Origin: Nonomuraea rubra
Lineage (GTDB): Bacteria > Actinomycetota > Actinomycetes > Streptosporangiales > Streptosporangiaceae
Assembly (NCBI RefSeq): GCF_014207985.1
Contig: NZ_JACHMI010000001.1
Span: forward strand, 5,253,001-5,317,000
Length of the DNA stretch: 64,000 bases
Direction of reading: 5' to 3'
The notes beneath the pieces were generated by a model that searched no databases, was not told the DNA's origin, and saw nothing but the letters and a program-made list of their open reading frames with translations. The translations under genes and the position numbers were made by a program. Below, piece after piece: positions 12,029-26,012 of this stretch (the stretch's first letter is position 1; every line of letters begins with the position of its first letter).

Positions 12029-12152
12029 CCGGCGCCGCCGAGTGAGGCCGGTGGGTCTGACCTGCGGTGCTGCCAGGCCCCGTGCGGGTCTGACCTGCGG
12101 TGCCAACCGGCCTTGTGAGGGTTTGACGTGCGGTGCTAACCGGCCTCTGTGA
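12021..12152. repeat. 33-bp tandem repeats spanning two convergent gene ends
   Basis: Three near-copies start at 12053, 12086 and 12119 (period 33) and share GGGTCTGACCTGCGGTGC; a diverged copy begins at 12021. The diverged copy holds the deacetylase stop and the last copy holds the aldo/keto reductase stop (12136-12138), so the array replaces a normal intergenic region. Confidence 0.8.
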
Positions 12153-13476: not shown

Positions 13477-13552
13477 GCCGGGTCCTCTCCTCAGATGGGT
13501 GGGTCTGTGGGAAGACCTCGGCGGGCTCCGGAACTCATCGGTGAGGGCGGGC

Positions 13553-13630
13553 AAACTTGATCAATTCCTTAACGGCGTACGTCGCGTCACAAGTGATCAT
13601 CTAATGCCGCATCGGCGACGCTGGGTGACA
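13553..13630 (+). promoter_or_regulatory. 78-bp promoter element, copy A
   Basis: This stretch is 69/78 identical, without gaps, to 15632-15709. Both copies contain the palindrome TTGATCAA (13557-13564) and a TGATCA in CAAGTGATCATCTA (13594-13599), with centres 36 bp apart. CATCTA may be a -10. The element precedes the first Cys-terminated secreted protein by about 50 bp and probably binds a shared regulator. Confidence 0.75.
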
Positions 13631-13678
13631 GACCGCCTCTCAGCACCCGATCACGACCCTTCGCCGCAAGGAGCCATC

Positions 13679-14122
13679 GTGCGCATCCGCGTTCTCGCCA
13701 CCGCCCTCGGCAGCCTCCTGCTCGCCGGGCCCGCCGCCGCCGACACCCCCGACCCGGCCACCGCCCCGCCGGCCGCCGCGCCCGGCGGTGACCCGGGCAA
13801 GCTCTGCTTCAGCATCCCGGTGGGCGCCATGGCCGACGCCTTCAGCACCGTCGTGTCCGGCCTGGCCGCGAGCGCCGCCGCGTCCGCCGGTGTGGCGCCG
13901 GGCGCCGCCGCACCCGCCGGTGGTGTGGCGCCGGGCGCTGCCACGCCCGCCGGCGGTGTCGCGCAGGGTGCTGCCGCGCCTTCGGGTGGCGTGGCGCCGG
14001 GTGCCGCGGCGCCCAGCGCCGGCGCGCCCGCGCAGGGCCAGGCGGGACCGGCGGCACCTCAACCGGCCGCTGGTCCCACCCTGCCCGAGCGGATGCTCGT
14101 CCTACAGGCGGCACCCTGCTGA
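13679..14122 (+). CDS. small secreted protein with Cys-terminated tail (paralogue A)
   Basis: This 147-residue protein starts at GTG 13679 after CAAGGAG. A Sec signal peptide (RVLATALGSLLLAGPAAA) is followed by a short conserved block GKLCFSIPVGAMADAFS (Cys43), a low-complexity centre of repeated GVAPGAAAPAGG units and a conserved tail LPERMLVLQAAPC, ending in Cys147. The block and tail match the 85-residue protein at 17234, so the two are paralogues; here the Ala/Gly/Pro insert makes the length difference. I know no named family. The 78-bp element upstream ties it to the ole operon. It may form a Cys43-Cys147 disulphide outside the cell. Confidence 0.72.
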   Translation: MRIRVLATALGSLLLAGPAAADTPDPATAPPAAAPGGDPGKLCFSIPVGAMADAFSTVVSGLAASAAASAGVAPGAAAPAGGVAPGAATPAGGVAQGAAAPSGGVAPGAAAPSAGAPAQGQAGPAAPQPAAGPTLPERMLVLQAAPC

Positions 14123-14242
14123 GGACCACCCCTCAGCCCGATCCGGCCCGGCGGCGAGCCGAGCCGGGCCGCCTCTCGGCCCGATCCAGGCCGCCGGCGA
14201 GTCGAGCCGGCTCCACCCGTCCAGCGACCGGAAGACCCGCAC

Positions 14243-14971
14243 ATGCACACCATCACCACCGCCCGGGCCGGCACCTGGCGGCTGCCCGTCATCCTGCTCG
14301 GCATCTCCGGCCTGCGGCTGGACCGCGGCACCCGCTACCGCCCCGCGCGCCTGCTCCTGTTCGCCCTGACCGCAGCCCTGTACTACCTGCTCACCCCGAT
14401 CCTGACGACCCCGGCCGTCGCCACCGCCTATGCGGGGACGGTGTGGCTGCTCTACTACGGCGGCCTGTGCCTGACGCTCGGCGGCCCCGTCCGCACGGCA
14501 CTCATCGCCCGCTTCGGCGAGGACCGCGCCTACGCCCTGTACGAGGTCGCCCTGGGCCTGCTCTTCATGAACCAGGGCTTCGCCCAGGCCGTCGTCATCC
14601 ACGCCCACGGCAACAGCCTCCCAGCGGCCATCCCCTCCTGGGCCGCCTACGTCACCGGAGCGGCCCTCATGGCGGTGGGCACGTTCTACAAGGTCTGGGC
14701 GGCCCGCACCGCCGGCCTGGACACCTACTACTGCCGCGACATGTTCACGGGCCGCCCGCTCACGGACGCGAGCGAGCTGGTCGCCGCGGGCCCGTACCGG
14801 CACCTGCGCAACCCCATGTACGGCGCCGGCAACCTGCACGCCTACGGCTGGGCCCTCTGGTCGGGCTCCCTGGCGGGCCTCGCCTTCGCGGCCGCCTTCC
14901 AGGCCGGCATCTACCTCTTCTACCACCTGTGCGAGCGCCCCTTCATCCAGCGCGCCTACGTCAGGAGGTGA
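14243..14971 (+). CDS. ICMT/PEMT-like integral membrane methyltransferase
   Basis: This 242-residue protein has five or six hydrophobic segments and, near its C-terminus, GPYRHLRNPMYGAG followed by a helix ending CERPFIQRAYVRR. The G-P-[YF]-x-x-x-R-[NH]-P-x-Y box with a downstream E-x-x is the S-adenosylmethionine-binding signature of isoprenylcysteine carboxyl and phospholipid methyltransferases. It lies 120 bp after secreted paralogue A on the same strand and probably shares its promoter. It may methylate a lipid or the ole product; ICMT enzymes methylate C-terminal cysteines, and both neighbouring secreted proteins end in Cys, but that link is speculative. Confidence 0.72.
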   Translation: MHTITTARAGTWRLPVILLGISGLRLDRGTRYRPARLLLFALTAALYYLLTPILTTPAVATAYAGTVWLLYYGGLCLTLGGPVRTALIARFGEDRAYALYEVALGLLFMNQGFAQAVVIHAHGNSLPAAIPSWAAYVTGAALMAVGTFYKVWAARTAGLDTYYCRDMFTGRPLTDASELVAAGPYRHLRNPMYGAGNLHAYGWALWSGSLAGLAFAAAFQAGIYLFYHLCERPFIQRAYVRR

Positions 14972-15521
14972 AGGTGATCCTGCCGGTGCCGTGGACGGCG
15001 CCGAGGCCCTTGGTGGCGCAGGAGTTCACGCCGGAGGTCGGGGTGGCGGTGCCGACGAGGTTCGATCCGGCCAGCGTGCCCTTGGTGACCCGCCCGCCGA
15101 GGAGCATGTCGCCGGGGTTGTAGCCGGCCACCTTCTCCACCGAGGGCCGCACGGTGGACACGCCCGTCTGACGGCCGTCGGCCCCGTACCAGGTGATCGT
15201 GCCCTTGCCGCGGACGTCCCGCACGCCGGCGCACGAGGCGCGGCCGGTGCTGTGCACGGTCATGATGCCCGAGCGCAGGCCGGCCGCCGACGGCGCCGAG
15301 GAGGTGCAGCCGGTCAGCACGATGGAGGCCTTGGCCGTCACGTTGCGGGGCAGCAGCCCGACCGGCGGCTCGAACGTGATCGGCCGTTCCGAGGTGGTGG
15401 AGACCTGGCAGGTGAGCAGCGTCTGCTGGACGGTCGCCGCCGCGGCCGGGGCGGTGGTCAGGGCGGCCGCCACGGCTACGGGCACGAGCGACCGGAAGCG
15501 GATGGGCGGGTGAAAGGGCAT
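14961..15521 (-). CDS. secreted protein of unknown function with four cysteines
   Basis: This 186-residue protein has a Sec signal peptide (FRSLVPVAVAAALTTAPAAA) and a mature beta-rich region with four Cys (LTCQV, LTGCTSS, ASCAGV, NSCATKG), spaced for two disulphides. CAAGGAGA precedes the ATG at 15521. No named family is recognised, but similar small secreted actinobacterial proteins are common. It is divergent from the ACP operon and sits against copy B of the 78-bp element. Its 3' end overlaps the methyltransferase gene by 11 bases on the other strand. Confidence 0.75.
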   Translation of the reverse strand: MPFHPPIRFRSLVPVAVAAALTTAPAAAATVQQTLLTCQVSTTSERPITFEPPVGLLPRNVTAKASIVLTGCTSSAPSAAGLRSGIMTVHSTGRASCAGVRDVRGKGTITWYGADGRQTGVSTVRPSVEKVAGYNPGDMLLGGRVTKGTLAGSNLVGTATPTSGVNSCATKGLGAVHGTGRITFTS

Positions 15522-15631
15522 GTCGTCTCCTTGTACGGGCCGTGATCGGTGCGCGGCCGATCCCCGCCGGCGCGCGTCCGCGACAGAAGCGAGCATGATC
15601 TGCGGCCGCACGGGCCAACCGCCTCGCGGCA

Positions 15632-15709
15632 AAACTTGATCAACTCCTTAACGGCGGACGACGTGCCACAAGTGATCATCTATCGCCCCATCGGGGACGC
15701 TGGGTGACA
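15632..15709 (+). promoter_or_regulatory. 78-bp promoter element, copy B
   Basis: This is the second copy of the element at 13553-13630 (9 mismatches, no gaps). It has TTGATCAA at 15636-15643 and TGATCA at 15673-15678, again 36 bp centre to centre. It lies 36 bp before the ACP start and probably drives the ACP-KASII-oleCDB operon; the divergent secreted-protein gene may share it. Confidence 0.75.
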
Positions 15710-15745
15710 CGAGGCGTACGACGCCCTCGGAGGAAGGAGCTCGCC

Positions 15746-15994
15746 GTGAGCGACGAAGACATCGTGACCGTGGTCCGCGAGCACTGCGCGAGGATCCTCA
15801 AGGTCGATCCCGGCCGGGTCACCGAGGACGCGCTGCTGCGCGAGGACCTGGAGGCCGACAGCCTGGACCTGGCCGAGCTCCACGTCGCCCTGGAGGACAC
15901 GTGGGGGCCGCTGCCCCGCGAGACCCTCGCCGACGTCCGGACGGTCGGCGACGTGCTGGCCAAGGCCCGCCTGCTGCTCAGCGAGCGCGCGTGA
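15746..15994 (+). CDS. acyl carrier protein
   Basis: This 82-residue acidic four-helix protein has the phosphopantetheine site DLEADSLDLAELHVALE with Ser39. GAGGAAGGAG lies before the GTG at 15746. Its stop overlaps the GTG of the KAS II by four bases. It is divergent from housekeeping AcpP in sequence and sits first in the ole operon, so it probably carries a dedicated acyl chain to OleA or extends one with the neighbouring KAS. A 4'-phosphopantetheinyl transferase is not in the window. Confidence 0.88.
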   Translation: MSDEDIVTVVREHCARILKVDPGRVTEDALLREDLEADSLDLAELHVALEDTWGPLPRETLADVRTVGDVLAKARLLLSERA

Positions 15995-17220
15995 CGGCCT
16001 CGCGGGTCCGGGTCGCGGTGACCGGGCTGGGGGTCCGCACGCCGGCGGGCGCCCAGCCCAAGGAGCTGTGGAACGCGCTGCTGGCCGGACGGTCCACCGC
16101 CCGCCCGATCACCTCGTTCGACACCGGGGGGCTGGGCGTCGGCTTCGCCTGCCAGGTCACCGACCTGGACGTCTCGGCGTACCTGACGCCCAAGCAGGCG
16201 TCCAGGCTCGACCGGATGGCCCAGCTCGCGCTGTGCGCCGCCACCGACGCCCTCGCCGACGCCGGAGCGCCGCGGACGCCGCCGCACCGGCGGGCGGTGG
16301 TGACCGGCTCCGGCTTCGGCGGCAGGATGACCGACGAGTCCGGCATGCTCACCGGGCGGCACCCCGGGCGCGGCAATCCCGGCCCGCTGCACGTACCGAT
16401 GATCATGCACAACTCCGCGGCCGCGGCCATCAGCATCCAGCACCGCGTCCAGGGCCCCAGCCTGGGGGTGGAGACGGCCTGCGCGTCCGGCTCCCACGCG
16501 ATCGGCGAGGCGGCCCGTCTGCTGCGCGACGGCTCCGCCGACCTGGTGATCGCCGGTGGGGCCGAAGCCTGCGTCACGCCGAGCGTGCTGCTCGCCTTCC
16601 ACCGCTGCCAGGCCCTGTCGGAGCGCAACGACGCGCCCGAGCGGGCCAGCAGGCCCTTCGACCGGGACCGCGACGGGTTCGTGCTGGCCGAGGGCGCAGC
16701 CTTCCTCGTCCTGGAGAACCTCGACCACGCCCTGCGCCGCGACGCCCGCATCCACGCCGAGCTCGTCGGCTACGCCGCCACCTCCGACGCCCACCACCTG
16801 ACCGCGCCGCCGCCGCGCGGCGAGGGAGCCGCGCGCTGCATGCGGGCCGCTCTCGCCGACGCCCGCCTGGCCCCCGAAGAGATCACGCACGTGAACGCCC
16901 ACGGCACCGGTACGCCGCTCAACGACGTCGCCGAGGCCCAGGCGATCAACGAGGCGTTCGGCGCCACCAGGGTTCCCGTCACCTCGATCAAGGGGGTCAC
17001 CGGGCACGCCATCGCCGCCGCCGGCGCCATCGAGGCCGTGGCCGCCGTCCTGTCGCTCAACGAACGGGCCATCCCGCCCACCGCCAACCTCGACCACCTG
17101 GACCCTCGATGCGACCTCGACGTCGTCGGCCGGGTCCGGCCCATGCCGCCGGGGCCGGTGATGTCCAACTCGTTCGGCTTCGGCGGCCACAACGCCACGC
17201 TGATCTTCTCGCCGCACTGA
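15991..17220 (+). CDS. beta-ketoacyl-ACP synthase II (FabF-like)
   Basis: This 409-residue condensing enzyme has all active-site residues: VETACASGSHAIG (Cys164), VNAHGTGTPLND (His304), and KGVTGHAIAAAGAIEAV (Lys334, His339). It is a full-length KAS I/II fold with no added domains. It starts at GTG 15991, overlapping the ACP stop. With the ACP it could extend an acyl chain before OleA condensation. No ketoreductase, dehydratase or enoyl reductase is in the operon, so chain processing would use the primary FAS or yield a beta-keto unit. It could also recruit a special starter. Confidence 0.88.
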   Translation: MTASRVRVAVTGLGVRTPAGAQPKELWNALLAGRSTARPITSFDTGGLGVGFACQVTDLDVSAYLTPKQASRLDRMAQLALCAATDALADAGAPRTPPHRRAVVTGSGFGGRMTDESGMLTGRHPGRGNPGPLHVPMIMHNSAAAAISIQHRVQGPSLGVETACASGSHAIGEAARLLRDGSADLVIAGGAEACVTPSVLLAFHRCQALSERNDAPERASRPFDRDRDGFVLAEGAAFLVLENLDHALRRDARIHAELVGYAATSDAHHLTAPPPRGEGAARCMRAALADARLAPEEITHVNAHGTGTPLNDVAEAQAINEAFGATRVPVTSIKGVTGHAIAAAGAIEAVAAVLSLNERAIPPTANLDHLDPRCDLDVVGRVRPMPPGPVMSNSFGFGGHNATLIFSPH

Positions 17221-17233
17221 CCAAGGACCTGAC

Positions 17234-17491
17234 ATGCGTATCTCCGCCGCCCTGCTCGCCACCACCCTGATCGCCTGCGCACCGGCCGCCCCGGCGGCGG
17301 CCGACGTGCCGTTCGCGGACCCGGACAGGGTGTGCGTCACCGTGCCCGTGCAGTCCCTCGCCCAGGCCTTCACGAACTTCTTCACCTCCGGCACCACCGC
17401 CGGGACGACGCCCGCGACCGCACCACCGGTGCGGCTCTTCGGCTTGGAGCTGCCCAGGGAGGTGCGCGTCCTGGAGGCCGCGTCCTGCTGA
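17234..17491 (+). CDS. small secreted protein with Cys-terminated tail (paralogue B)
   Basis: This 85-residue protein starts at ATG 17234, 13 bp after the KAS II stop. The N-terminus is a signal peptide; LIAC at residues 12-15 fits a lipobox, so it could be a lipoprotein, although paralogue A lacks this. The mature part carries DRVCVTVPVQSLAQAFTNFF (Cys34) and the tail LELPREVRVLEAASC, ending in Cys85, matching the block and tail of the protein at 13679. It is embedded in the ACP-KASII-oleCDB operon, so a role in product handling outside the membrane is likely. No family name is known. Confidence 0.75.
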   Translation: MRISAALLATTLIACAPAAPAAADVPFADPDRVCVTVPVQSLAQAFTNFFTSGTTAGTTPATAPPVRLFGLELPREVRVLEAASC

Positions 17492-17537
17492 GCCCCGCCC
17501 ACCAGGGCACTCCCGGAGCTGTGAGAGGTGATGCGGT

Positions 17538-19139
17538 GTGACCACCCCGCTCTTCGACGTCGTGGCCATGACCGAGCACTGGATGCACGCCCATCCCGAC
17601 ACGGTCGCGTGCCGCGTCGAGCGGCGCCGCCACGCCGAGACGCTGACCTACGGCCGGCTCGACGAGCTCATCACCCTGGCCGCGACCAGGCTGGCGCGCG
17701 CCGGCGTGACGGCGGGGACGCGGGCCGCCGTGCTCGTCCCGCCGGGCAGGGAGCTGGTCGCCGTGATCCTGGCTCTGTTGCGGCTGCGGGCCGTGCCGGT
17801 GCTGATCGATCCGGGGCTCGGCGCGCGCGCCATCGGCGCCTGCCTCGACCAGGCCGCGCCCGGCGCGTTCATCGCGGTCCCGCGCGCCCACCTGGCGCGC
17901 GTCGTGCTGGGCTGGGCGCGCGACAGCGTGCACACCACCGTCACGCTCGCCACGAGCACCCTGTGGTTCGCCCGCACCCACCATCGAAGCGAGCCTGCCC
18001 TGAAGCCGGAGGCCGGGGATCCGGCGCTGATCGTCTTCACCTCGGGCTCCACCGGCCCGCCCAAGGGGGTGCCCTACCGCCACCGGCACCTGGCCGGGCA
18101 GACCGGCCTGCTGGCGCACGTCGGCGCGTTCGAGCCGGGCGCCACCCTGTACTCGACGTTCCTGCCGTTCGCGGTGGCGGCGCCGTCGATGGGGTGCGCC
18201 GCCGTCATCCCGCAGCTCGACCTGCGCCATCCCGAACGCACCGACCCGGCCGCCATGGCCCGCTCCATCACCGCCCACGGCGTGCGCGCCCTGTTCGCCG
18301 CGCCCGCCCTGCTGGACCGGCTCGCCCGCCACTGCCTGCGCCACGGCCTGGTCCTGCACGGTGTCGAGACCGTGCTCACCGCCGGCGCGCCCCTGCCGTT
18401 CCCGGTGCTGCGGCGCGCCCAGCGGTGCCTGCCCGCGCACGCCGGCGTGCGCTCGGTGTACGGCGCGACCGAATGCCTGCTGGTCAGCATGGCGGACGCG
18501 GCCGACCTCACCGCCACGGCCGAGGCCACCGCCCGCGGCGCCGGCACCTGCCTGGGCGGCGTCCTGCCTGGCAACCGGGTCCGCGTCATCAGGATCACCG
18601 ACGAGCCGATCCCGCGCTGGTCGGACGACCTGCTGGCACCGCCCGGCACCGTCGGGGAGATCACCGTGGCGGGCCCGGCGGTCGGCGACCCGTACCTCGC
18701 CCGCCCGTACGACAGCGCCCTGGCCCGCATCGACGACCACGGCGAGCCCGTGCACCGCATGGGCGACCTCGGCCGTCAGGACGAGCAGGGGCGGCTGTGG
18801 TTCGCCGGACGCAAGAGCGAGCGCGTGCGCACCGCCGGCGGCGAGCTGTACACCGACCACGTCGAGCCGGTCGCCGACGCGGTGCCGGGCGTGCGGCGCA
18901 GCGCGCTGGTGGGGGTGGGGCCGCCGGGCGACCAGCACCCCGTCCTGTGCGTGGAGTGCGAGCCGGGCACCTCACGGCGCGAACGCCGCGAGACCGTCGA
19001 ACGGGTGCGTGCGCTCGGCGGCATCACGCACGTGCTGGCCCACCCGGGCTTCCCGATGGACGTCCGGCACGCCAGCAAGATCTGCCGCCCGCTGCTGGCC
19101 CGCTGGGCCGCCGGGAAGCTCGGCCGGGAGGAACGGTGA
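17538..19139 (+). CDS. oleC: OleC-type beta-lactone synthetase (AMP-ligase superfamily)
   Basis: This 533-residue ANL-superfamily enzyme has the P-loop FTSGSTGPPKG (167-177), YGATECLL (A5-like) near 315 and FAGRKSERVRTAGG near the C-terminus. OleC converts a 2-alkyl-3-hydroxy acid to a cis-beta-lactone with ATP, rather than making a thioester. The assignment rests on the fold plus direct coupling to OleD and OleB. The GTG at 17538 follows GAGAGGTG. The stop overlaps the oleD start. A fatty-acyl-AMP ligase loading the ACP is the main alternative, but the OleABD neighbours make OleC more likely. Confidence 0.82.
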   Translation: MTTPLFDVVAMTEHWMHAHPDTVACRVERRRHAETLTYGRLDELITLAATRLARAGVTAGTRAAVLVPPGRELVAVILALLRLRAVPVLIDPGLGARAIGACLDQAAPGAFIAVPRAHLARVVLGWARDSVHTTVTLATSTLWFARTHHRSEPALKPEAGDPALIVFTSGSTGPPKGVPYRHRHLAGQTGLLAHVGAFEPGATLYSTFLPFAVAAPSMGCAAVIPQLDLRHPERTDPAAMARSITAHGVRALFAAPALLDRLARHCLRHGLVLHGVETVLTAGAPLPFPVLRRAQRCLPAHAGVRSVYGATECLLVSMADAADLTATAEATARGAGTCLGGVLPGNRVRVIRITDEPIPRWSDDLLAPPGTVGEITVAGPAVGDPYLARPYDSALARIDDHGEPVHRMGDLGRQDEQGRLWFAGRKSERVRTAGGELYTDHVEPVADAVPGVRRSALVGVGPPGDQHPVLCVECEPGTSRRERRETVERVRALGGITHVLAHPGFPMDVRHASKICRPLLARWAAGKLGREER

Positions 19140-20137
19140 AGGTCCTGGTCACCGGCGGCGGCGGGTTCCTCGGACAGGCCGTGTGCCGGCTGCTGGCCGA
19201 GCGGGGCGACCACGTCTCCGCGCTGAACCGCCGCCGCCACCCGGCGCTGGCCGGCCTCGGCGTCGTCCAGCACGCCACCGACCTCCGCGACCCGGACGGC
19301 GTACGGGCCGCCGTGGCGGGCTGCGACGCCGTCGTGCACTGCGCCGCCCTGGCCGGCCTGTGGGGACCGGCCGGCGACTACCGCTCCGTCAACGTGCGGG
19401 GCACGGCGAACGTGATCAACGCCTGCCTGCATGCCGGCGTCCCGCGCCTGGTGCACACCTCCTCGCCGAGCGTCGTCCACGGCGGGCGCGACCTGGAGGG
19501 CGTGGACGAGTCGGCCCCGCACGCCCGCCGGTTCCTGGCCCCCTACCCGGCGAGCAAGGCGGTCGCGGAACGGCTCGTCCTGGCCGCCGACGGCGACCGG
19601 CTCGCCACGGTCGCGCTGCGCCCGCACCTCATCTGGGGCCCGGGGGACCCGCACTTCCTGCCGCACCTCGCTGCCCGGGCACGCCGCGGGCGGCTCGTCC
19701 TGCCGCACGCTCCAGGCAAGCTCATCGACACGGTGTACGTCGACAACGCCGCCCGGGCCCACCTGCTGGCCCTGGACGCGCTCGCGCCGGGCTCGCCGCC
19801 CGCGGGCCGGGCCTACTTCATCACCCAGGGCGAGCCCCTCCCGCTCACCCACTGGGTCAACGCCCTGCTGGACGCCGCGGGCCTGCCACCGGTCACCCGG
19901 CACGTGCCGGCCCGCCTGGCCCGCCTGGGCGCCGCGGCCATCGAGTACGGCTACCGGCTCGCCCGCGTCCGGGCCCGGCCGCCCCTCACCCGCCTGGCCG
20001 CCGTCCAGGCCACGACCTCCCACTGGTTCGACATCTCCGCCGCCCGCCGCGACCTCGGCTACGAGCCGCGCATCAGCATGGCGGACGGTCTCGCCAGGCT
20101 CGCCGCCCACCTCTCCGCGAACCCCGTGGCGCCCTGA
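19136..20137 (+). CDS. oleD: OleD-type NADP-dependent 2-alkyl-3-ketoacid reductase
   Basis: This 333-residue extended short-chain dehydrogenase has the Rossmann motif TGGGGFLG (6-13), VNVRGTANVI, HTSSPSVVHGG and the catalytic pair in YPASK (Tyr137, Lys141). HLIWGPGDPHFLPHL is typical of OleD/3-beta-HSD-like enzymes. OleD reduces the beta-keto acid made by OleA to the 3-hydroxy acid used by OleC. The start GTG 19136 overlaps the oleC stop, and its own stop overlaps the oleB ATG (TGATG), so oleC-oleD-oleB are translated in a coupled series. Confidence 0.85.
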   Translation: MKVLVTGGGGFLGQAVCRLLAERGDHVSALNRRRHPALAGLGVVQHATDLRDPDGVRAAVAGCDAVVHCAALAGLWGPAGDYRSVNVRGTANVINACLHAGVPRLVHTSSPSVVHGGRDLEGVDESAPHARRFLAPYPASKAVAERLVLAADGDRLATVALRPHLIWGPGDPHFLPHLAARARRGRLVLPHAPGKLIDTVYVDNAARAHLLALDALAPGSPPAGRAYFITQGEPLPLTHWVNALLDAAGLPPVTRHVPARLARLGAAAIEYGYRLARVRARPPLTRLAAVQATTSHWFDISAARRDLGYEPRISMADGLARLAAHLSANPVAP

Positions 20138-21057
20138 TGTCCGGGCACACCCGGCCGCGCCTGCCCGGCTACCCGTTCCGCTCCCGCTGGTTCACCCGCG
20201 ACGGGCTGCGCCGGCACTACCTGGACGAGGGCGGCGGCGCCCCCGTTCTGATGCTGCACGGCAACCCCTCGTGGAGCTACCTGTGGCGGCGGCTGATCGT
20301 GGCGCTGCGCGGCGAGCACCGCTGCGTCGCGCCCGACCACCTCGGCATGGGCCTGTCGGACAAACCCGGCGCCGACCGCTACCCCTTCACCCTGGCCTCC
20401 CGCGTGGACGACCTCGACGCGCTCACCGGCCACCTCATCGCCGAACGCGCCGCCCCCGACCGCGGCTGGACGCTCGTGGTGCACGACTGGGGCGGCCCCA
20501 TCGGCCTGGCCTGGGCCGCCCGCCACCCCGGCCGGGTGTCCCGGCTGGTCGTGCTCAACACCGCCGCCTTCCCCGACCCGCACGGCCCGCGCGTCCGCCC
20601 GGCGCTGCGGCCGCCGCTGTGGCTGCTGCGCGAGACCCGGCTGGGGGAGCGGCTGTTCCTGCGCCACCACGCGTTCGCCCGGCTGGCCACGCTGCCGCCG
20701 TTCGGAGTCCGCCGCCGGCTGCCGGCGGACGTGCGGGCCGCCTTCCTGGCCCCGGACGACCGCGCGGGGCACCGGCTGGCCGTCCAGCGGTTCGTGCACG
20801 ACATCCCGCTCCGGCCCGGCCACCCGTCCTGGCCGCTGCTGCTCCAGGCGGAGGAGACCTTGGCCGCCTTCGCCGACCGGCCCGTCCTGATCGGCTGGGG
20901 GCTGCGCGACCCGGTCTTCGACCCGCTCATGCTGCGCGAATGGCGACACCGCCTGCCTCGCGCCCAGGCGCACGTCTTCCCCCGCGCCGGGCACTACGTG
21001 CTGGAGGACGCCCACGACGAACTCGTACCGGCCATCACCGGCTTCCTACGGAACTGA
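20137..21057 (+). CDS. oleB: OleB-type alpha/beta hydrolase (beta-lactone decarboxylase)
   Basis: This 306-residue enzyme is of the haloalkane dehalogenase-like group. It has MLHGNPSWSYLWR (oxyanion loop and the Trp), VVHDWGGPIGL with nucleophile Asp117, and RAGHYVLED with the catalytic His near residue 286. In characterised systems OleB opens the beta-lactone and releases CO2 to give a cis-olefin. A working OleB favours an olefin; if it is inactive or absent in the complex, the beta-lactone remains. The 3' end overlaps the convergent MMPL gene by 12 bases. Confidence 0.83.
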   Translation: MSGHTRPRLPGYPFRSRWFTRDGLRRHYLDEGGGAPVLMLHGNPSWSYLWRRLIVALRGEHRCVAPDHLGMGLSDKPGADRYPFTLASRVDDLDALTGHLIAERAAPDRGWTLVVHDWGGPIGLAWAARHPGRVSRLVVLNTAAFPDPHGPRVRPALRPPLWLLRETRLGERLFLRHHAFARLATLPPFGVRRRLPADVRAAFLAPDDRAGHRLAVQRFVHDIPLRPGHPSWPLLLQAEETLAAFADRPVLIGWGLRDPVFDPLMLREWRHRLPRAQAHVFPRAGHYVLEDAHDELVPAITGFLRN

Positions 21058-23301
21058 GCCCCGCCCGCTCCCGAAGCCGGGCAGCCACCAGTTCCGATGC
21101 CCCAGCAGCCGCATCAGGCACGGCACCAGCACCATCCGGATGATCGTCGCGTCCAGGATGATCGCCGCCGCCACCGCGAACCCGCCCTGCTGGAAGTCCA
21201 GCCGCCGGGTGAGCATCAGCCCGCCGAACGTGACGGCCATGATGGCGGCCGCCAGCGTGATGGGACGCGCGGTGTGCCTCAGCCCGTGGAGCACGGCGGC
21301 GGTGTTGTCGCCGGTGCGGCGGTAGTGCTCGGCGATGCGGTGGACGAGGAAGACCTCGTAGTCCAGGGACAGGCCGAAGACGATGGTGAAGACGATCAGC
21401 GGCAGCAGGGCGTTGATGTCGGCGCCGTCCCCGCCGAGGTCCTGGAAGGCGACGGTGAGCAGCCCGAAGGCGGCGCAGACGCACAGCAGGTTCATGGCGA
21501 CCGCCTTGACCGGGATGAGCAGGCTGCGGAAGGTCAGCAACAGCAGCACGAACGACGCCAGCAGCACCACCCCCAGCACCCGCCACAACCCGCCGGCGGC
21601 GCCCGCCGCCAGGTCGCCGAGCCGCGCCGCCGGCCCGACGGCCAGCAGCGGCTGACCGGCGGGCAGCAGGCGGGCGCCGAGCGCGTGCAGGTCCCGCTGG
21701 AAGGCGGCCGCCGCGGCCCCGTCCGGCGGGCACCGGTCGGCGATCAGCATCACGGTCAGGTCCCTGCCGTTGTCCATCACGGTGGCCATGGACACCCTCG
21801 GGTCGGCCCGCAACGCCTGCTGGAACGCGAACGTGTCCACGGGGACGGGCCTGCCCGGGTGCGGCAGCGCCACGGTGGTCAGGCCGGCCACCGCGTCCCG
21901 TTCCAGCTCCGCCAGCCCGGCGCCGAGGTCGGTCCCGGCGAGCGCCGGACGGTCGTAGTGCAGCCCCATCCGCAGATGCAGCACCGGGACGGCGGCCAGG
22001 ACCAGCACGGCGGTGGCGGCCACGGCGTACCGGCCGGGCCGCTCCATCATGTGCCCGGCCGCGCGCACCCACGCGGGCTGCCCGGCACCCCGCGAGGCCC
22101 GCGCGGGCCGCCTCCCACCTCGTGCTGCCCGCGGCCAGGCCGGACGTGGCGTGTCCCGGCCGGGCCGCCGCCACGGCAGCGTGGCCCACTCCAGGTGGCG
22201 ATCCATCCGGGACAGCAGCGCGGGGCCGAGCGTCAGCGCCGCCGCCAGGGTGACGAGGGCCGCCAGCATGCCGGCCAGCGCCAGGGAGTGCGCCCACGGC
22301 ACCTCGACGACCAGCAGCGCGCACGAGGTGACGACGATGGCGGCCCCGCACCAGGTCACCGTCCCGCCCGCGGTGGCCGCCGCACGCCCGGCGGCCACCC
22401 GGGGCGGCAGCCCCGCCCGCCGGGCCTGCCGGTAACGCAGCAGGATCAGCAGCGTGTAGTCGAGCCCCAGCCCCAGCGACATGGTGACGGTGTAGGTCAG
22501 CATGGTCGAATCGACCGGCACGAACGCGGCCGCCGACGCGAGCGCGCCCACGCCGGTCAGGATCGCCACGCCCCCCACCGCCAGCGGCACCGCCGCCGCG
22601 CCCACCGCCCCCAGCCCGAGCACCAGCAGCACCGCCGCCACCGGAACCGTCATGGCCTCCATCGACCGCAGATCCGCCAGGTCGGCATGGGCGAGCTGCG
22701 CGAACGCACGGCTCACCCCCAGGATCGTCACGGTGACCGCCCCGGCCGACGCCTCCCGGGCCGCCTGCCGGGCGCTCGCGAGCTGGGCGGGCAGGTTCCG
22801 CTGCCGGGCCGGCTCGTCGCCGTGCACGCCCACCAGCACGTACGCGTGCCGGGGATGCCTGCCGTCGGTCTCCGGCAGCGGCAACATCGCACCCACGTCG
22901 GGCCTGGCGGCCAGCCTGTTCACCGTGGCGGCGATCGCCTGCTCGTAGCGCGGCTCGTCCGCGTTCAGCGTCGCCGAGCCGAAGGCCAGCATCATCTGCT
23001 CGCCGCCCAGCTCCGGGAACCCGCGCGCGACCAGCGCGGCGGCCGCCGCGGACGGCGAGCCGGGCACTTCCAGCGAGGGCGGGGCCAGCCGGTGCGTGAG
23101 CCCGGGCAGCGACATCACGGCTCCGGCGGCCAGCAGCAGCCACACCGCGATGACGAACAGGCCGCCCGTGCCCGCCGCCGCCCGGCCCAGCCGGTCGAGG
23201 ACGCCGGAGCCACCGGCGAGCCCGTCCCGCCGCCCGCCGATCCCCGAGGGCGGCAGGACGGCGCCGCGACGGAGCCGGCGGCCACGCAGATCGACCGGCA
23301 T
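21046..23301 (-). CDS. MMPL-family (RND superfamily) lipid exporter
   Basis: This 751-residue membrane protein has two matching halves, each with one TM, a large periplasmic loop and about five clustered TMs (TYTVTMSLGLGLDYTLLILL in half one, VFTIVFGLSLDYEVFLVHRI in half two). The GxxxDY motifs hold the proton-relay Asp-Tyr pairs of MmpL proteins. MMPLs export mycolates, glycolipids and other large lipids. GGAGGGAGG precedes the ATG at 23301. It is 70 bp from oleA on the same strand, and with it forms the convergent arm of the cluster, so it likely exports the ole product or its precursor lipid. Confidence 0.86.
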   Translation of the reverse strand: MPVDLRGRRLRRGAVLPPSGIGGRRDGLAGGSGVLDRLGRAAAGTGGLFVIAVWLLLAAGAVMSLPGLTHRLAPPSLEVPGSPSAAAAALVARGFPELGGEQMMLAFGSATLNADEPRYEQAIAATVNRLAARPDVGAMLPLPETDGRHPRHAYVLVGVHGDEPARQRNLPAQLASARQAAREASAGAVTVTILGVSRAFAQLAHADLADLRSMEAMTVPVAAVLLVLGLGAVGAAAVPLAVGGVAILTGVGALASAAAFVPVDSTMLTYTVTMSLGLGLDYTLLILLRYRQARRAGLPPRVAAGRAAATAGGTVTWCGAAIVVTSCALLVVEVPWAHSLALAGMLAALVTLAAALTLGPALLSRMDRHLEWATLPWRRPGRDTPRPAWPRAARGGRRPARASRGAGQPAWVRAAGHMMERPGRYAVAATAVLVLAAVPVLHLRMGLHYDRPALAGTDLGAGLAELERDAVAGLTTVALPHPGRPVPVDTFAFQQALRADPRVSMATVMDNGRDLTVMLIADRCPPDGAAAAAFQRDLHALGARLLPAGQPLLAVGPAARLGDLAAGAAGGLWRVLGVVLLASFVLLLLTFRSLLIPVKAVAMNLLCVCAAFGLLTVAFQDLGGDGADINALLPLIVFTIVFGLSLDYEVFLVHRIAEHYRRTGDNTAAVLHGLRHTARPITLAAAIMAVTFGGLMLTRRLDFQQGGFAVAAAIILDATIIRMVLVPCLMRLLGHRNWWLPGFGSGRGSVP

Positions 23302-23371
23302 GGTCAAGCCTCCCTCCGCCCCTGATGGCGAGGCGATCGGGCCGTCCCGCAGGCAGCCCGGCCGTCCCCTG

Positions 23372-24382
23372 TCACCAGCGCAGCAGCATCGTGCCCGAGC
23401 TGAGCCCGCTGGCCACGCCCACCAGCGCGACGAGGTCACCCCGCCGCAGCCGTCCCGCCCGCTCGGCCTGGTGCAGCTGCATCGGCAACGTGGAGGCGGC
23501 GAGGTTCCCGTGCTCGGCGATCGTCACCTCGGCCCTGTCCCGGGGCAGCTCGATCAGCTCGCACAGCCAGTGCAGCGCCGCCAGCGACGGCTGGTGCGCG
23601 CACACCACGGCCAGGTCCTCCCAGCCGAGCCCGCGCTCGGCCAGCGGCTGCCGCAGCACGCCGAGGTCCAGCTTCTGCACCCCGATGGCCAGCGCGATGG
23701 GATCGATGGCGAACTCGCCGCCGCGGAAACCACCGGCGGCCTCCCGTACGAACGGCAGAATCGACGCCTCCCAGTACGCGGAGTTCGCCCCGAACCGGTG
23801 CCCGAGCACCCCGGGAGTGCCGCTGGACTCCAGCAGCAGCGCCGACCCCGAGTCGGACACCGTGTAGGACGGGATCGCGGCCTCGAAGTCCTCCTGCGAC
23901 TCCACCCGCCACCGGATGCTGGAGGTGACGACCTCGCCGCAGGCGACGAGCACCGTACGGTGATGGCCGCCGGTGATGAGCGCGTCGGCCAGGTGGATCG
24001 CCCGCAGGACGCTGTTGCAGGCGTCCCGCACGTCGAAGACCGGGCAGGAGGCCCCCAGCTTGGCCGCCACCATGTGCCCCGTCGCGGGTTCGACGGCGTC
24101 GCCGGACACGCCCGCGTAGATGATCAGGTCGATCGACGGCGGCGTGTGCCCGGTCCGCCGCAGCAGCTCGCGGGCCGCCTCCACCGCCAGGTCCGACGCC
24201 ATGCGATCCGGCGGGGCGACGTGCCGCCGCCGTACGCCGCTGTGCCGCTCGATCAGGCCGCGCGGCACGCGGAACCCGGGGTTGCGCTCGGCCAGCAGGT
24301 CTTCCAGCTGCGGCGTCGTCAGCTCATCGTCCGGCACGTGCACCGCCACCCCGGTCACCCTGGAGTACCGTGACCGGCTCAT
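23372..24382 (-). CDS. oleA: OleA-type thiolase (KAS III-like acyl-CoA/ACP condensing enzyme)
   Basis: This 336-residue thiolase-fold enzyme has the active-site Cys122 in FDVRDACNSVLRA, the His in VVCAHQPSLAALH and the Asn in AEHGNLAASTLPMQL. Glu98 in GDAVEPATGH is a candidate for the extra OleA base. OleA joins two fatty acyl thioesters head to head to a beta-keto acid. FabH itself is the alternative, but the presence of OleB, OleC and OleD argues against it. GGGAGGAG precedes the ATG at 24382. The gene faces away from the ACP operon and starts the MMPL transcript. Confidence 0.83.
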   Translation of the reverse strand: MSRSRYSRVTGVAVHVPDDELTTPQLEDLLAERNPGFRVPRGLIERHSGVRRRHVAPPDRMASDLAVEAARELLRRTGHTPPSIDLIIYAGVSGDAVEPATGHMVAAKLGASCPVFDVRDACNSVLRAIHLADALITGGHHRTVLVACGEVVTSSIRWRVESQEDFEAAIPSYTVSDSGSALLLESSGTPGVLGHRFGANSAYWEASILPFVREAAGGFRGGEFAIDPIALAIGVQKLDLGVLRQPLAERGLGWEDLAVVCAHQPSLAALHWLCELIELPRDRAEVTIAEHGNLAASTLPMQLHQAERAGRLRRGDLVALVGVASGLSSGTMLLRW

Positions 24383-24623: not shown

Positions 24624-26012
24624 ATGATCGACCCGCAGACCGTCGAGCAGTACGACCTCCCCGGCCACCTCGAAGCCGTGCCCGACGAGATCGACGCCGT
24701 GAACCTGCCCGTGACCGGCGCCCTGCCGCCCGAGCTGGACGGCCGCTACCTCCGCAACGGCCCGAACCCCCTGCCCGGCCGGCGCAGCGGCCACCTGCAG
24801 ACGGGCCACGGCATGCTGCACGGCGTACGGCTGAGCGGCGGCCGCGCCGAGTGGTACCGCAACCGGTGGGTGCGGACCGGAGCCTTCCACGGCAGGCCGT
24901 TCGTCACGCCCGACGGCCGCGTGGACCTGGCCTCCACCTCGGCCAACACCCACGTGATGGCCCACGCCGACCGCATCTACGCCCTGGTCGAGGTGGGCCT
25001 GCCGTACGAGGTGACGCCCGAGCTCGGCACCGTCGGCCCCTGCGACTTCGGCGGCCGGCTCACCACCGCCATGACCGCCCACCCCAAGCGCGACCCGGAC
25101 ACCGGCGAGCTGCACTTCTTCGGCTACGGCTTCCGCCCGCCGTTCCTCACCTACCACCGGCTGGACGCCAAGGGCGAGCTCGTCCACAGCCGGGAGGTGC
25201 CGGTGCGGGCGGGCACGATGATGCACGACTTCGCCGTCACCGAGCACCACGTCGTCTGGCTCGACCTGCCCATGACCTTCCAGCTCGCGCTCGCCGGCCA
25301 GGGCATGCCGTACGGGTGGGACGACTCCCACGGCGCCCGCCTCGGCCTGATGCGGCACGACCGGCCGGACCCCGAGGTGACCTGGTTCGAGATCGAGCCG
25401 TGCTGGGTCTTCCACGTCGGCAACGCCCATGAGGACGCCGCCGGGCGGGTGGTCGTGGACGCGGTCCGCTACTCGCCGGCCGAGTGGAACGCGCTGTGGG
25501 CGCTGCTGTCGCGGGCCGACGCCGCGCGCGGCTTCGTCCCGACGGACCCGGCGGTCGGCCGCGCCCGCCTGCACCGCTGGACCCTCGACCCGGCCACCGG
25601 CACCGCTGCCGAGCAGCGGCTCGACGACCGGGTGGTGGAGTTCCCGACGATCGACGACGACCTCACCGGGCGGCACTCCCGCTACCTCTACACCGTCACC
25701 GGCGGCGAGCCGCGCAGCCGCGACCGCTGCGCGATCGTCAAGTACGACCTGCACGACGGGACGTGCGCCGTCCACCAGCTGGACGGCGACACGATGATCG
25801 GCGAGGCGGTGTTCGTGCCGGCGGCGCAGGGGCCGCGCCGGGAGGACGACGGCTGGCTGATGGCCGTCGCCACCCGCCGCGACGGCTCCGCCTCGCAGCT
25901 CCTGGTCCTCGACGCCGGCCGCGTGGCGGGCGGGCCGGTGGCGTCGGTGGAGCTGCCGCGCGGCGTGCCGACCGGCTTCCACGGCTCCTGGATCCCCGAC
26001 CGTCGTCCCTGA
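24624..26012 (+). CDS. carotenoid cleavage-type dioxygenase (RPE65 family)
   Basis: This 462-residue enzyme has the seven-bladed propeller pattern and the four iron-binding His motifs: MTAHPKRDPDTGELHFFGYG, MMHDFAVTEHH, CWVFHVGNAHEDA and GFHGSWIPD. The start DGRYLRNGPNPLPGRRSGHL is also typical. Members cleave carotenoid or stilbene double bonds with O2. GGAGGGGCGCC precedes the ATG at 24624. It is divergent from oleA across 241 bp and convergent with nothing. Its link to the ole pathway is uncertain; a carotenoid or unsaturated chain is the likely substrate. Confidence 0.88.
   Translation: MIDPQTVEQYDLPGHLEAVPDEIDAVNLPVTGALPPELDGRYLRNGPNPLPGRRSGHLQTGHGMLHGVRLSGGRAEWYRNRWVRTGAFHGRPFVTPDGRVDLASTSANTHVMAHADRIYALVEVGLPYEVTPELGTVGPCDFGGRLTTAMTAHPKRDPDTGELHFFGYGFRPPFLTYHRLDAKGELVHSREVPVRAGTMMHDFAVTEHHVVWLDLPMTFQLALAGQGMPYGWDDSHGARLGLMRHDRPDPEVTWFEIEPCWVFHVGNAHEDAAGRVVVDAVRYSPAEWNALWALLSRADAARGFVPTDPAVGRARLHRWTLDPATGTAAEQRLDDRVVEFPTIDDDLTGRHSRYLYTVTGGEPRSRDRCAIVKYDLHDGTCAVHQLDGDTMIGEAVFVPAAQGPRREDDGWLMAVATRRDGSASQLLVLDAGRVAGGPVASVELPRGVPTGFHGSWIPDRRP

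What the first reader, a model, noticed from the sequence alone, without database searches (positions are those of the whole stretch)
13553..24382. A complete OleABCD cluster with its own ACP, KAS II, MMPL and secreted Cys-ended proteins
OleA, B, C and D are all present with intact active-site residues, so the cells can probably make long-chain cis-olefins or a beta-lactone intermediate. The added ACP and KAS II suggest a dedicated acyl chain, and the MMPL next to oleA suggests export of a large lipid. Known ole and nocardiolactone clusters carry OleABCD-type genes; the combination with ACP, KAS II, MMPL, an ICMT-like methyltransferase and two secreted paralogues is not one I know.
Basis: partly seen in the sequence, partly recalled or inferred. 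Interest (0 to 1): 0.85.

Follow-up and report, generated by a model that had tools for sequence, protein, structure and literature searches.

The report
Actinomycete olefin cluster with own ACP
This soil bacterium carries a complete, probably working gene set for joining two fatty chains head to head into a long hydrocarbon; it belongs to a distinct branch of that pathway in filamentous actinomycetes, often paired with a polyketide synthase that this strain seems to have lost while keeping its own carrier protein, chain-extending enzyme, putative lipid pump and small secreted proteins.

Summary
OleA, B, C and D, an ACP, a KAS II, an MMPL, a PEMT-family methyltransferase and two secreted paralogues ending in Cys are intact in a Nonomuraea-like genome. 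OleA has the OleA-defining Glu-Pro plus Cys, His and Asn (26 of 26 aligned), although HMM scores and fold cannot tell it from FabH. It lies in a clade (54 rows, SH-aLRT 96) that a published OleA search pattern does not match (0 of 66 clade rows, 9 of 9 canonical). Among 52 OleABCD loci found with this clade's OleC, 41 also hold a reducing type I PKS without thioesterase. N. candida has OleA-PKS-MMPL in a row; the window and two relatives have OleA beside MMPL without it. ACP plus KAS joined ole genes separately in Nonomuraea and Streptomyces. Best reading: an olefin pathway fed by ACP-bound chains, with export by MMPL; the product is predicted, not shown. An 84-bp element heads both plus-strand units. 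The Cys-ended proteins are probably disulfide-closed; modification of that Cys by the methyltransferase is weakened. New variant of a known kind.

The parts
13547..13630 (+). 84-bp conserved upstream element, copy 1, before S1 and the methyltransferase gene
   Evidence: 87% identical to copy 2; 96% identical in L057 and L058
13679..14122 (+). S1, secreted protein with two Cys in the mature part, the second being the last residue
   Evidence: orthologues seen in L057 and L058 only among the 7 Nonomuraea relatives (L060's contig is short on that side)
14243..14971 (+). PEMT/ICMT superfamily membrane methyltransferase
   Evidence: PF04191 2.6e-20; in 3 of 12 genomes searched
14961..15521 (-). S0, secreted protein of unknown family; neighbour, membership in the system uncertain
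   Evidence: no Pfam; 15 homologues, the named ones in Nonomuraea or Actinomadura; in 6 of 7 relatives
15626..15709 (+). 84-bp conserved upstream element, copy 2, before the ACP-KAS-S2-OleC-OleD-OleB unit
   Evidence: present upstream of ACP in all 7 relatives L057-L063
15746..15994 (+). free-standing acyl carrier protein (DSL serine present)
   Evidence: PF00550 1.7e-8
15991..17220 (+). KAS II (FabF-type ketosynthase), Cys-His-His intact
   Evidence: TIGR03150 3.7e-142
17234..17491 (+). S2, secreted paralogue of S1 ending in Cys
17538..19139 (+). OleC, beta-lactone synthetase
19136..20137 (+). OleD, 2-alkyl-3-oxoalkanoate reductase
   Evidence: NF042422 2.3e-121
20137..21057 (+). OleB, beta-lactone decarboxylase type hydrolase
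21046..23301 (-). MMPL-family membrane protein, proposed lipid exporter
   Evidence: PF03176 2.1e-60; downstream of OleB, convergent, in 6 of 7 Nonomuraea relatives
23302..23371 (.). 70-bp gap between oleA and the MMPL gene, where N. candida carries an 8-kb iterative PKS gene
23372..24382 (-). OleA, non-decarboxylative Claisen thiolase (by homology) of a distinct clade

Best explanation
A working OleABCD pathway of a distinct actinomycete branch. Two plus-strand units, each headed by a copy of one 84-bp element, encode S1 and a methyltransferase, and ACP, KAS, S2, OleC, OleD and OleB; OleA and the MMPL are encoded on the opposite strand. Proposed course: KAS and ACP, using the reductive enzymes of the general fatty acid synthase, supply a dedicated long acyl chain on ACP (inferred). 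OleA loads one chain on C122 and joins a second to it by Claisen condensation with E98 as base (residues shown, chemistry by homology). OleD reduces the beta-keto acid, OleC closes the beta-lactone, OleB removes CO2 to leave a cis-olefin (homology). The MMPL moves the hydrocarbon or a derivative out (inferred), and the disulfide-closed S1 and S2 act at the surface, perhaps with the lipid (guess). In many relatives the special chain would come from a thioesterase-less, C-methylating, reducing iterative PKS encoded beside oleA, with OleA as the releasing enzyme (inferred); the window's lineage appears to have lost that PKS.
For: All four Ole enzymes with intact catalytic residues. OleA Glu-Pro, which PMC7064751 reports in all but two of its aligned OleA proteins; it calls the Glu mechanism unique to OleA homologues (passages). 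OleA clade separate from 7 KAS III rows and from canonical OleA. Conserved layout in Nonomuraea and the element in 8 of 8 loci, window included; its core occurs in the window's genome only at these two places. PKS domains within the locus in 41 of 52 OleABCD loci; in the one PKS read by Pfam in full the domains end at the ACP without a thioesterase. Intact OleA-PKS-MMPL in N. candida, OleA followed by PKS in N. longispora and N. deserti; OleA next to MMPL in the window, L057 and L058; no PKS match at E 1e-120 in the window's genome. Two separate KAS lineages beside ole genes, with an ACP visible in 12 of 14 Streptomycetaceae loci. Precedent: PMC6463001 concludes that OleA takes acyl-ACP from the multidomain Pfa synthase (abstract and passages).
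Confidence: 0.6

Rival explanations
1. The end product is a beta-lactone natural product (lipstatin or nocardiolactone type); OleB acts slowly or on something else.
For: OleA, C and D without OleB make beta-lactones in Streptomyces toxytricini and Nocardia brasiliensis (PMC7064751 section 11). S1, S2, MMPL and a dedicated ACP look like a secreted-metabolite cluster.
Against: OleB is seen in 57 of 62 annotated loci, and its Asp and His do not vary in 75 rows; the beta-lactone producers named lack oleB.
Confidence: 0.15
2. 'OleA' is a FabH-like priming synthase that starts a chain for KAS and ACP by decarboxylative condensation, and the Ole products are something else.
For: HMM scores, sequence and fold place it as near to FabH as to OleA.
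Against: Glu-Pro, in 26 of 26 aligned clade and canonical OleA, is absent from the two FabH-like proteins of the same genome (by eye); OleA lies with OleB, C and D in 52 of 62 loci.
Confidence: 0.1
3. The pathway is decaying: the PKS loss removed the proper substrate and what is left makes little or uses bulk fatty acids only.
For: PKS absent at the locus in the window, L057 and L058; the KAS of L057 matches in two frames.
Against: In the window all genes are open; orthologues in L057 and L058 are 70-95% identical apart from S1 and S2 (38-55%), and the element is 96-99% identical. Ole loci with KAS and no PKS also occur in Streptomycetaceae (8 of 52 loci in all, 4 of them there).
Confidence: 0.1
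4. S1 and S2 are modified (lipidated or methylated) on the last Cys, with the ICMT-like methyltransferase taking part.
For: C-terminal Cys in 10 of 10 and 8 of 8 database homologues (which overlap the ten); the methyltransferase is next to S1 under the same element.
Against: No match to the methyltransferase in the genomes of N. longispora, N. deserti, N. fuscirosea and N. candida, which keep a Cys-ended S2; each protein has exactly one other Cys outside the signal region, which favours a disulfide; the enzyme would have to act before export (reasoning).
Confidence: 0.08

Closest known systems
OleABCD olefin pathway (Xanthomonas, Shewanella, Micrococcus)
   Same: Same four enzyme types with the same catalytic residues where compared; OleA Glu-Pro, Cys, His, Asn
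   Different: Distinct OleA clade with NACN or DACN instead of NACL and a shorter loop before it; OleB and OleC not fused as in many Micrococcales; added ACP, KAS, MMPL and secreted proteins
Pfa synthase-Ole coupling in Shewanella and Photobacterium (PMC6463001, PMC3098273; passages seen)
   Same: A multidomain type I synthase feeds ACP-bound chains to OleA; ole genes are often linked to such synthases
   Different: The synthase of the relatives is a KS-AT-DH-MT-ER-KR-ACP reducing PKS, not a PfaABCD set, and is missing from the window's cluster, which has a free ACP and KAS
Lipstatin and nocardiolactone beta-lactone clusters
   Same: OleA-, OleC- and OleD-type enzymes in actinomycetes
   Different: They lack OleB. 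The rows that I labelled lipstatin-type from motif and lack of OleB (not compared with the lipstatin genes themselves) fall outside the clade
MxnB and CorB ketosynthases
   Different: No OleBCD partners (recalled); the Glu-Pro site was not compared
Mycobacterial PKS-MmpL lipid loci (PDIM, sulfolipid; recalled)
   Same: Iterative reducing PKS beside an MMPL; the N. maritima PKS scores 1081 bits on the Pks2 model, below its cut-off of 2400
   Different: No Ole enzymes there (recalled); here a methyltransferase domain sits inside the PKS

Membership tests
OleABCD olefin pathway | All of OleA, OleB, OleC, OleD encoded together | tested here: met
OleABCD olefin pathway | OleA Glu followed by Pro (Glu117 of X. 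campestris OleA) with Cys, His, Asn | tested here: met
   E98-P99, C122, H263, N293 in 26 of 26 (21 clade, 5 canonical); meaning of the Glu from passages of PMC7064751
OleABCD olefin pathway | Published OleA search pattern EPxx[AS]x(14,18)DxxNACL (PMC7158056, passage) | tested here: not met
   0 of 66 clade rows, 9 of 9 canonical rows; the window protein fails by inspection (EPATG, DACN). A search pattern, not a catalytic requirement
OleABCD olefin pathway | Curated HMM cut-off for PRK09258, the model that canonical OleA passes | tested here: not met
   138 bits against 285; one canonical OleA (L158) 393, one other clade member (L087) 149
OleABCD olefin pathway | Fold closer to OleA than to FabH | tested here: inconclusive
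OleABCD olefin pathway | Production of a head-to-head olefin | not testable with these tools
   needs lipid analysis
Beta-lactone (OleACD) clusters | Absence of OleB | tested here: not met
   OleB 20137-21057 intact
FabH (KAS III) | Groups with the genome's own FabH in a tree | tested here: not met
   clade of 54 rows apart from 7 KAS III rows, 6 of them from the window's genome (quick method)
ICMT | Specific relation to isoprenylcysteine methyltransferase | tested here: inconclusive
   only PF04191, no NCBIfam, no PDB relative

The most novel reading that the evidence does not exclude
Filamentous actinomycetes hold an undescribed branch of the Ole pathway in which OleA is the off-loading enzyme of a thioesterase-less, C-methylating reducing PKS and works on carrier-protein-bound chains, giving methyl-branched PKS-fatty acid hybrid hydrocarbons; a carrier protein plus ketosynthase was added separately at least twice, and in the window's lineage replaced the PKS. 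The hydrocarbon is exported by MMPL and held at the cell or spore surface with two-Cys secreted peptides.
Probability: 0.35. Interest if true: 0.8.

Novelty: new variant of a known kind. Interest (0 to 1): 0.62.

Why it matters
A published survey (PMC7158056, sections 5 and 9 seen) names Micrococcales as the only Gram-positive order with oleABCD; its search pattern cannot see this branch. If these clusters work as inferred, olefin biosynthesis reaches species of Streptomyces, Nonomuraea, Microbispora, Actinomadura and others, and a reducing PKS ends in a hydrocarbon through OleA. It also makes the question of whether OleA uses acyl-CoA or acyl-ACP directly testable, since a free ACP and a ketosynthase sit in the operon.

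Tried and rejected
Pfam and NCBIfam gave nothing for S1 and S2, Pfam nothing for S0 (in one search the S0 reference was one base off frame and was repeated correctly). PDB search with the methyltransferase gave only antibody chance hits. Fold comparison could not separate OleA from FabH. A genome search with S2 found no S2 in N. deserti although one is there, so short-protein searches miss divergent members and S1's absence elsewhere is not proven. Paper searches naming Nonomuraea listed only papers that look unrelated by title. Pfam found no domain in L100:12590-12838 taken as ACP; a frame scan shows a DSL-type ACP before KAS in 12 of 14 loci, none recognised in L106 and L111.

Considered and rejected: that the ole-linked KAS of Nonomuraea and Streptomyces share one origin (AU p 7.5e-68, 7 and 13 rows; L174, a KAS of N. 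fuscirosea outside the cluster, lies next to the Nonomuraea group and was outside the held group, as were L087, L113 and L116). That the 84-bp element is a widespread promoter. That S2 is a lipoprotein: its signal-region Cys is not conserved. That the same PKS lies elsewhere in the window's genome (150 and 143 of 169 candidates scored).

Rows dropped: L119 (Prevotella, weak) before the layout count; L114, L115 (broken or partial) and L027-L037 (in part the same strains as named loci) before the OleA tree; L114, L115, L117, L118 and short or low-scoring rows, where L027-L042 were kept, so some strains count twice; the type I KS, second ketosynthases of pairs, L127, L129, L057 and duplicates. 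Of the 62 loci the ten not counted as OleABCD are L059, L060, L063 (oleA beyond the locus), L076, L082, L084, L090, L115, L117 and L118.

Full report
What is there. The window is position 5253001-5317000 of a 12.9-Mb genome whose nearest named relatives by OleC are [Actinomadura] parvosata and Nonomuraea species. From 13547 to 24382 it holds, in order: an 84-bp element, the secreted S1, a PEMT-family methyltransferase, the secreted S0 (minus strand), a second copy of the 84-bp element, ACP, KAS II, secreted S2, OleC, OleD, OleB, and on the minus strand MMPL and OleA. ACP/KAS, OleC/OleD and OleD/OleB overlap by 1-4 bases, so ACP to OleB looks like one operon. A carotenoid oxygenase gene follows at 24624.

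Relatives. OleC matches were found in 18 of 150 genomes of the family (own included, E 1e-60) and in 19 of 396 of a phylum sample (own included, E 1e-55). All 17 other family loci were fetched and annotated: 11 have OleA-OleC-OleD-OleB in a row with a ketosynthase match 6-7 kb away. In the two of these read in full it is the KS of one protein of about 2550 residues, which Pfam resolves in one of them as KS-AT-DH-MT-ER-KR-ACP without thioesterase. A scan of the named genome collection gave 63 loci. It used two peptide motifs of this clade's OleC, so it favours this clade. Of these, 62 were annotated. OleABCD is complete in 52 of 62. Of the 52, 41 have at least three of five PKS domains within the locus, 20 a KAS, 12 both, 8 only the KAS, and 3 neither (L075 shows two PKS domains at a contig end, L081 ends at oleA, L078 has none). 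In most Streptomyces loci the PKS is divergent from oleA-oleB-oleC-oleD; in 12 the row is followed by a KAS. A DSL-type ACP is visible before the KAS in 12 of 14 Streptomycetaceae loci examined.

Loss of the PKS. In N. candida one contig carries OleA, PKS (2651 residues), MMPL, then OleB-OleD-OleC in convergent orientation. In N. deserti OleA is followed by the PKS start at a contig end, and another contig starts inside the PKS and goes on to MMPL; in N. longispora OleA is followed by the PKS up to a contig end. In the window OleA and MMPL are 70 bp apart, and under 100 bp in [Actinomadura] parvosata (L057) and N. sp. PA05 (L058). The window's genome has no PKS match at E 1e-120; its best is 37% over part of the query. 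As these three form the inner group of the OleA tree with N. deserti outside (supports 87, 92 and 100), loss in their ancestor is the simplest account. N. fuscirosea and N. wenchangensis also show no PKS at the cluster. Against a clean picture: [Actinomadura] parvosata and N. candida each have a second, PKS-OleA-OleC-OleD-OleB cluster (L083, L077), and N. sp. PA05 and N. wenchangensis have a 47% identical PKS on another contig, not examined further.

Carrier protein and KAS. The Nonomuraea and the Streptomyces ole-linked KAS lie in different parts of the KAS tree, and a common clade is rejected (7 and 13 rows, AU p 7.5e-68). So the KAS joined ole genes at least twice, which speaks for a functional tie to OleABCD. 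The nearest precedent is PMC6463001 (abstract and passages seen): in E. [quoted passage not shown] So a synthase feeding OleA is a known idea. I saw no mention of the reducing C-methylating PKS with OleABCD, this OleA clade or the free ACP-KAS form in the listings, abstract starts and passages (open-licence papers only; most listed papers were not opened).

Why it was missed. PMC7158056 (abstract, sections 5 and 9 and passages seen) searched with EPxx[AS]x(14,18)DxxNACL and reports Micrococcales as the only Gram-positive order with oleABCD. The pattern matches 9 of 9 canonical OleA in my set and 0 of 66 clade rows (53 of them in the tree), because the clade reads NACN or DACN.

Control element. 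Eleven copies align over about 80 bp: upstream of ACP in the window and all 7 Nonomuraea relatives, and upstream of S1 in the window, L057 and L058. Most copies hold TTGATCAA, CCTTAACGG and GTGATCA. A 22-base core with up to 3 mismatches occurs twice in the window's genome (both here), once in N. deserti and not in four other genomes of the genus; the reversed control pattern gives none. In N. fuscirosea and N. wenchangensis oleA diverges from ACP across this element.

Secreted proteins. Ten S proteins from seven loci (window included) have a signal-like start, a variable low-complexity middle, C-x-x-V/I-P-V and a final Cys; outside the signal region these are the only two Cys (signal regions judged by eye). 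A profile search found 8 proteins (only the 7996 best-sharing candidates were scored), all with a final Cys; the six with an organism name are Nonomuraea. A disulfide that closes the protein is the simplest reading. The methyltransferase occurs in 3 of 12 genomes, those of the three loci with S1, and was not found in four genomes whose S2 also ends in Cys.

Judgement. The wider picture is the more interesting part: a branch of the Ole pathway in filamentous actinomycetes, tied to a reducing PKS or an ACP-KAS pair. No product has been shown.

Noticed in passing
window 24624-26012: Carotenoid oxygenase (RPE65 family) gene next to oleA, kept at the same place in L057 and L058 (90 and 80% identical); may be only a neighbour.
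   Followed up: partly
window 14961-15521: S0, a secreted protein without a Pfam model; 15 homologues, named ones only in Nonomuraea and Actinomadura, present in 6 of 7 Nonomuraea relatives at the cluster.
   Followed up: partly
L215 9672-11221: A second ACP-KAS pair (42 and 59% identical to the window's) in N. fuscirosea with no ole genes within the 20 kb read.
   Followed up: partly
L098: Streptomyces fulvorobeus locus with two clade OleA, two KAS and a FabH-like protein around one OleB, OleC, OleD set, and several small ACP-like proteins by eye.
   Followed up: no
L028 12737-14243: DUF6230 and DUF6114 genes directly after the PKS-OleA-OleC-OleD-OleB row; the same contig as N. maritima L086.
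   Followed up: no
L087 1273-6788: Streptantibioticus ole cluster preceded by a 1029-residue protein, an ACP-like and an acyl-AMP ligase-like protein (by eye), perhaps another way of supplying chains.
   Followed up: no
window 12053-12145: Three 27-nt repeats at 33-nt spacing at the ends of a YdjC-family gene and a convergent oxidoreductase-like gene.
   Followed up: no
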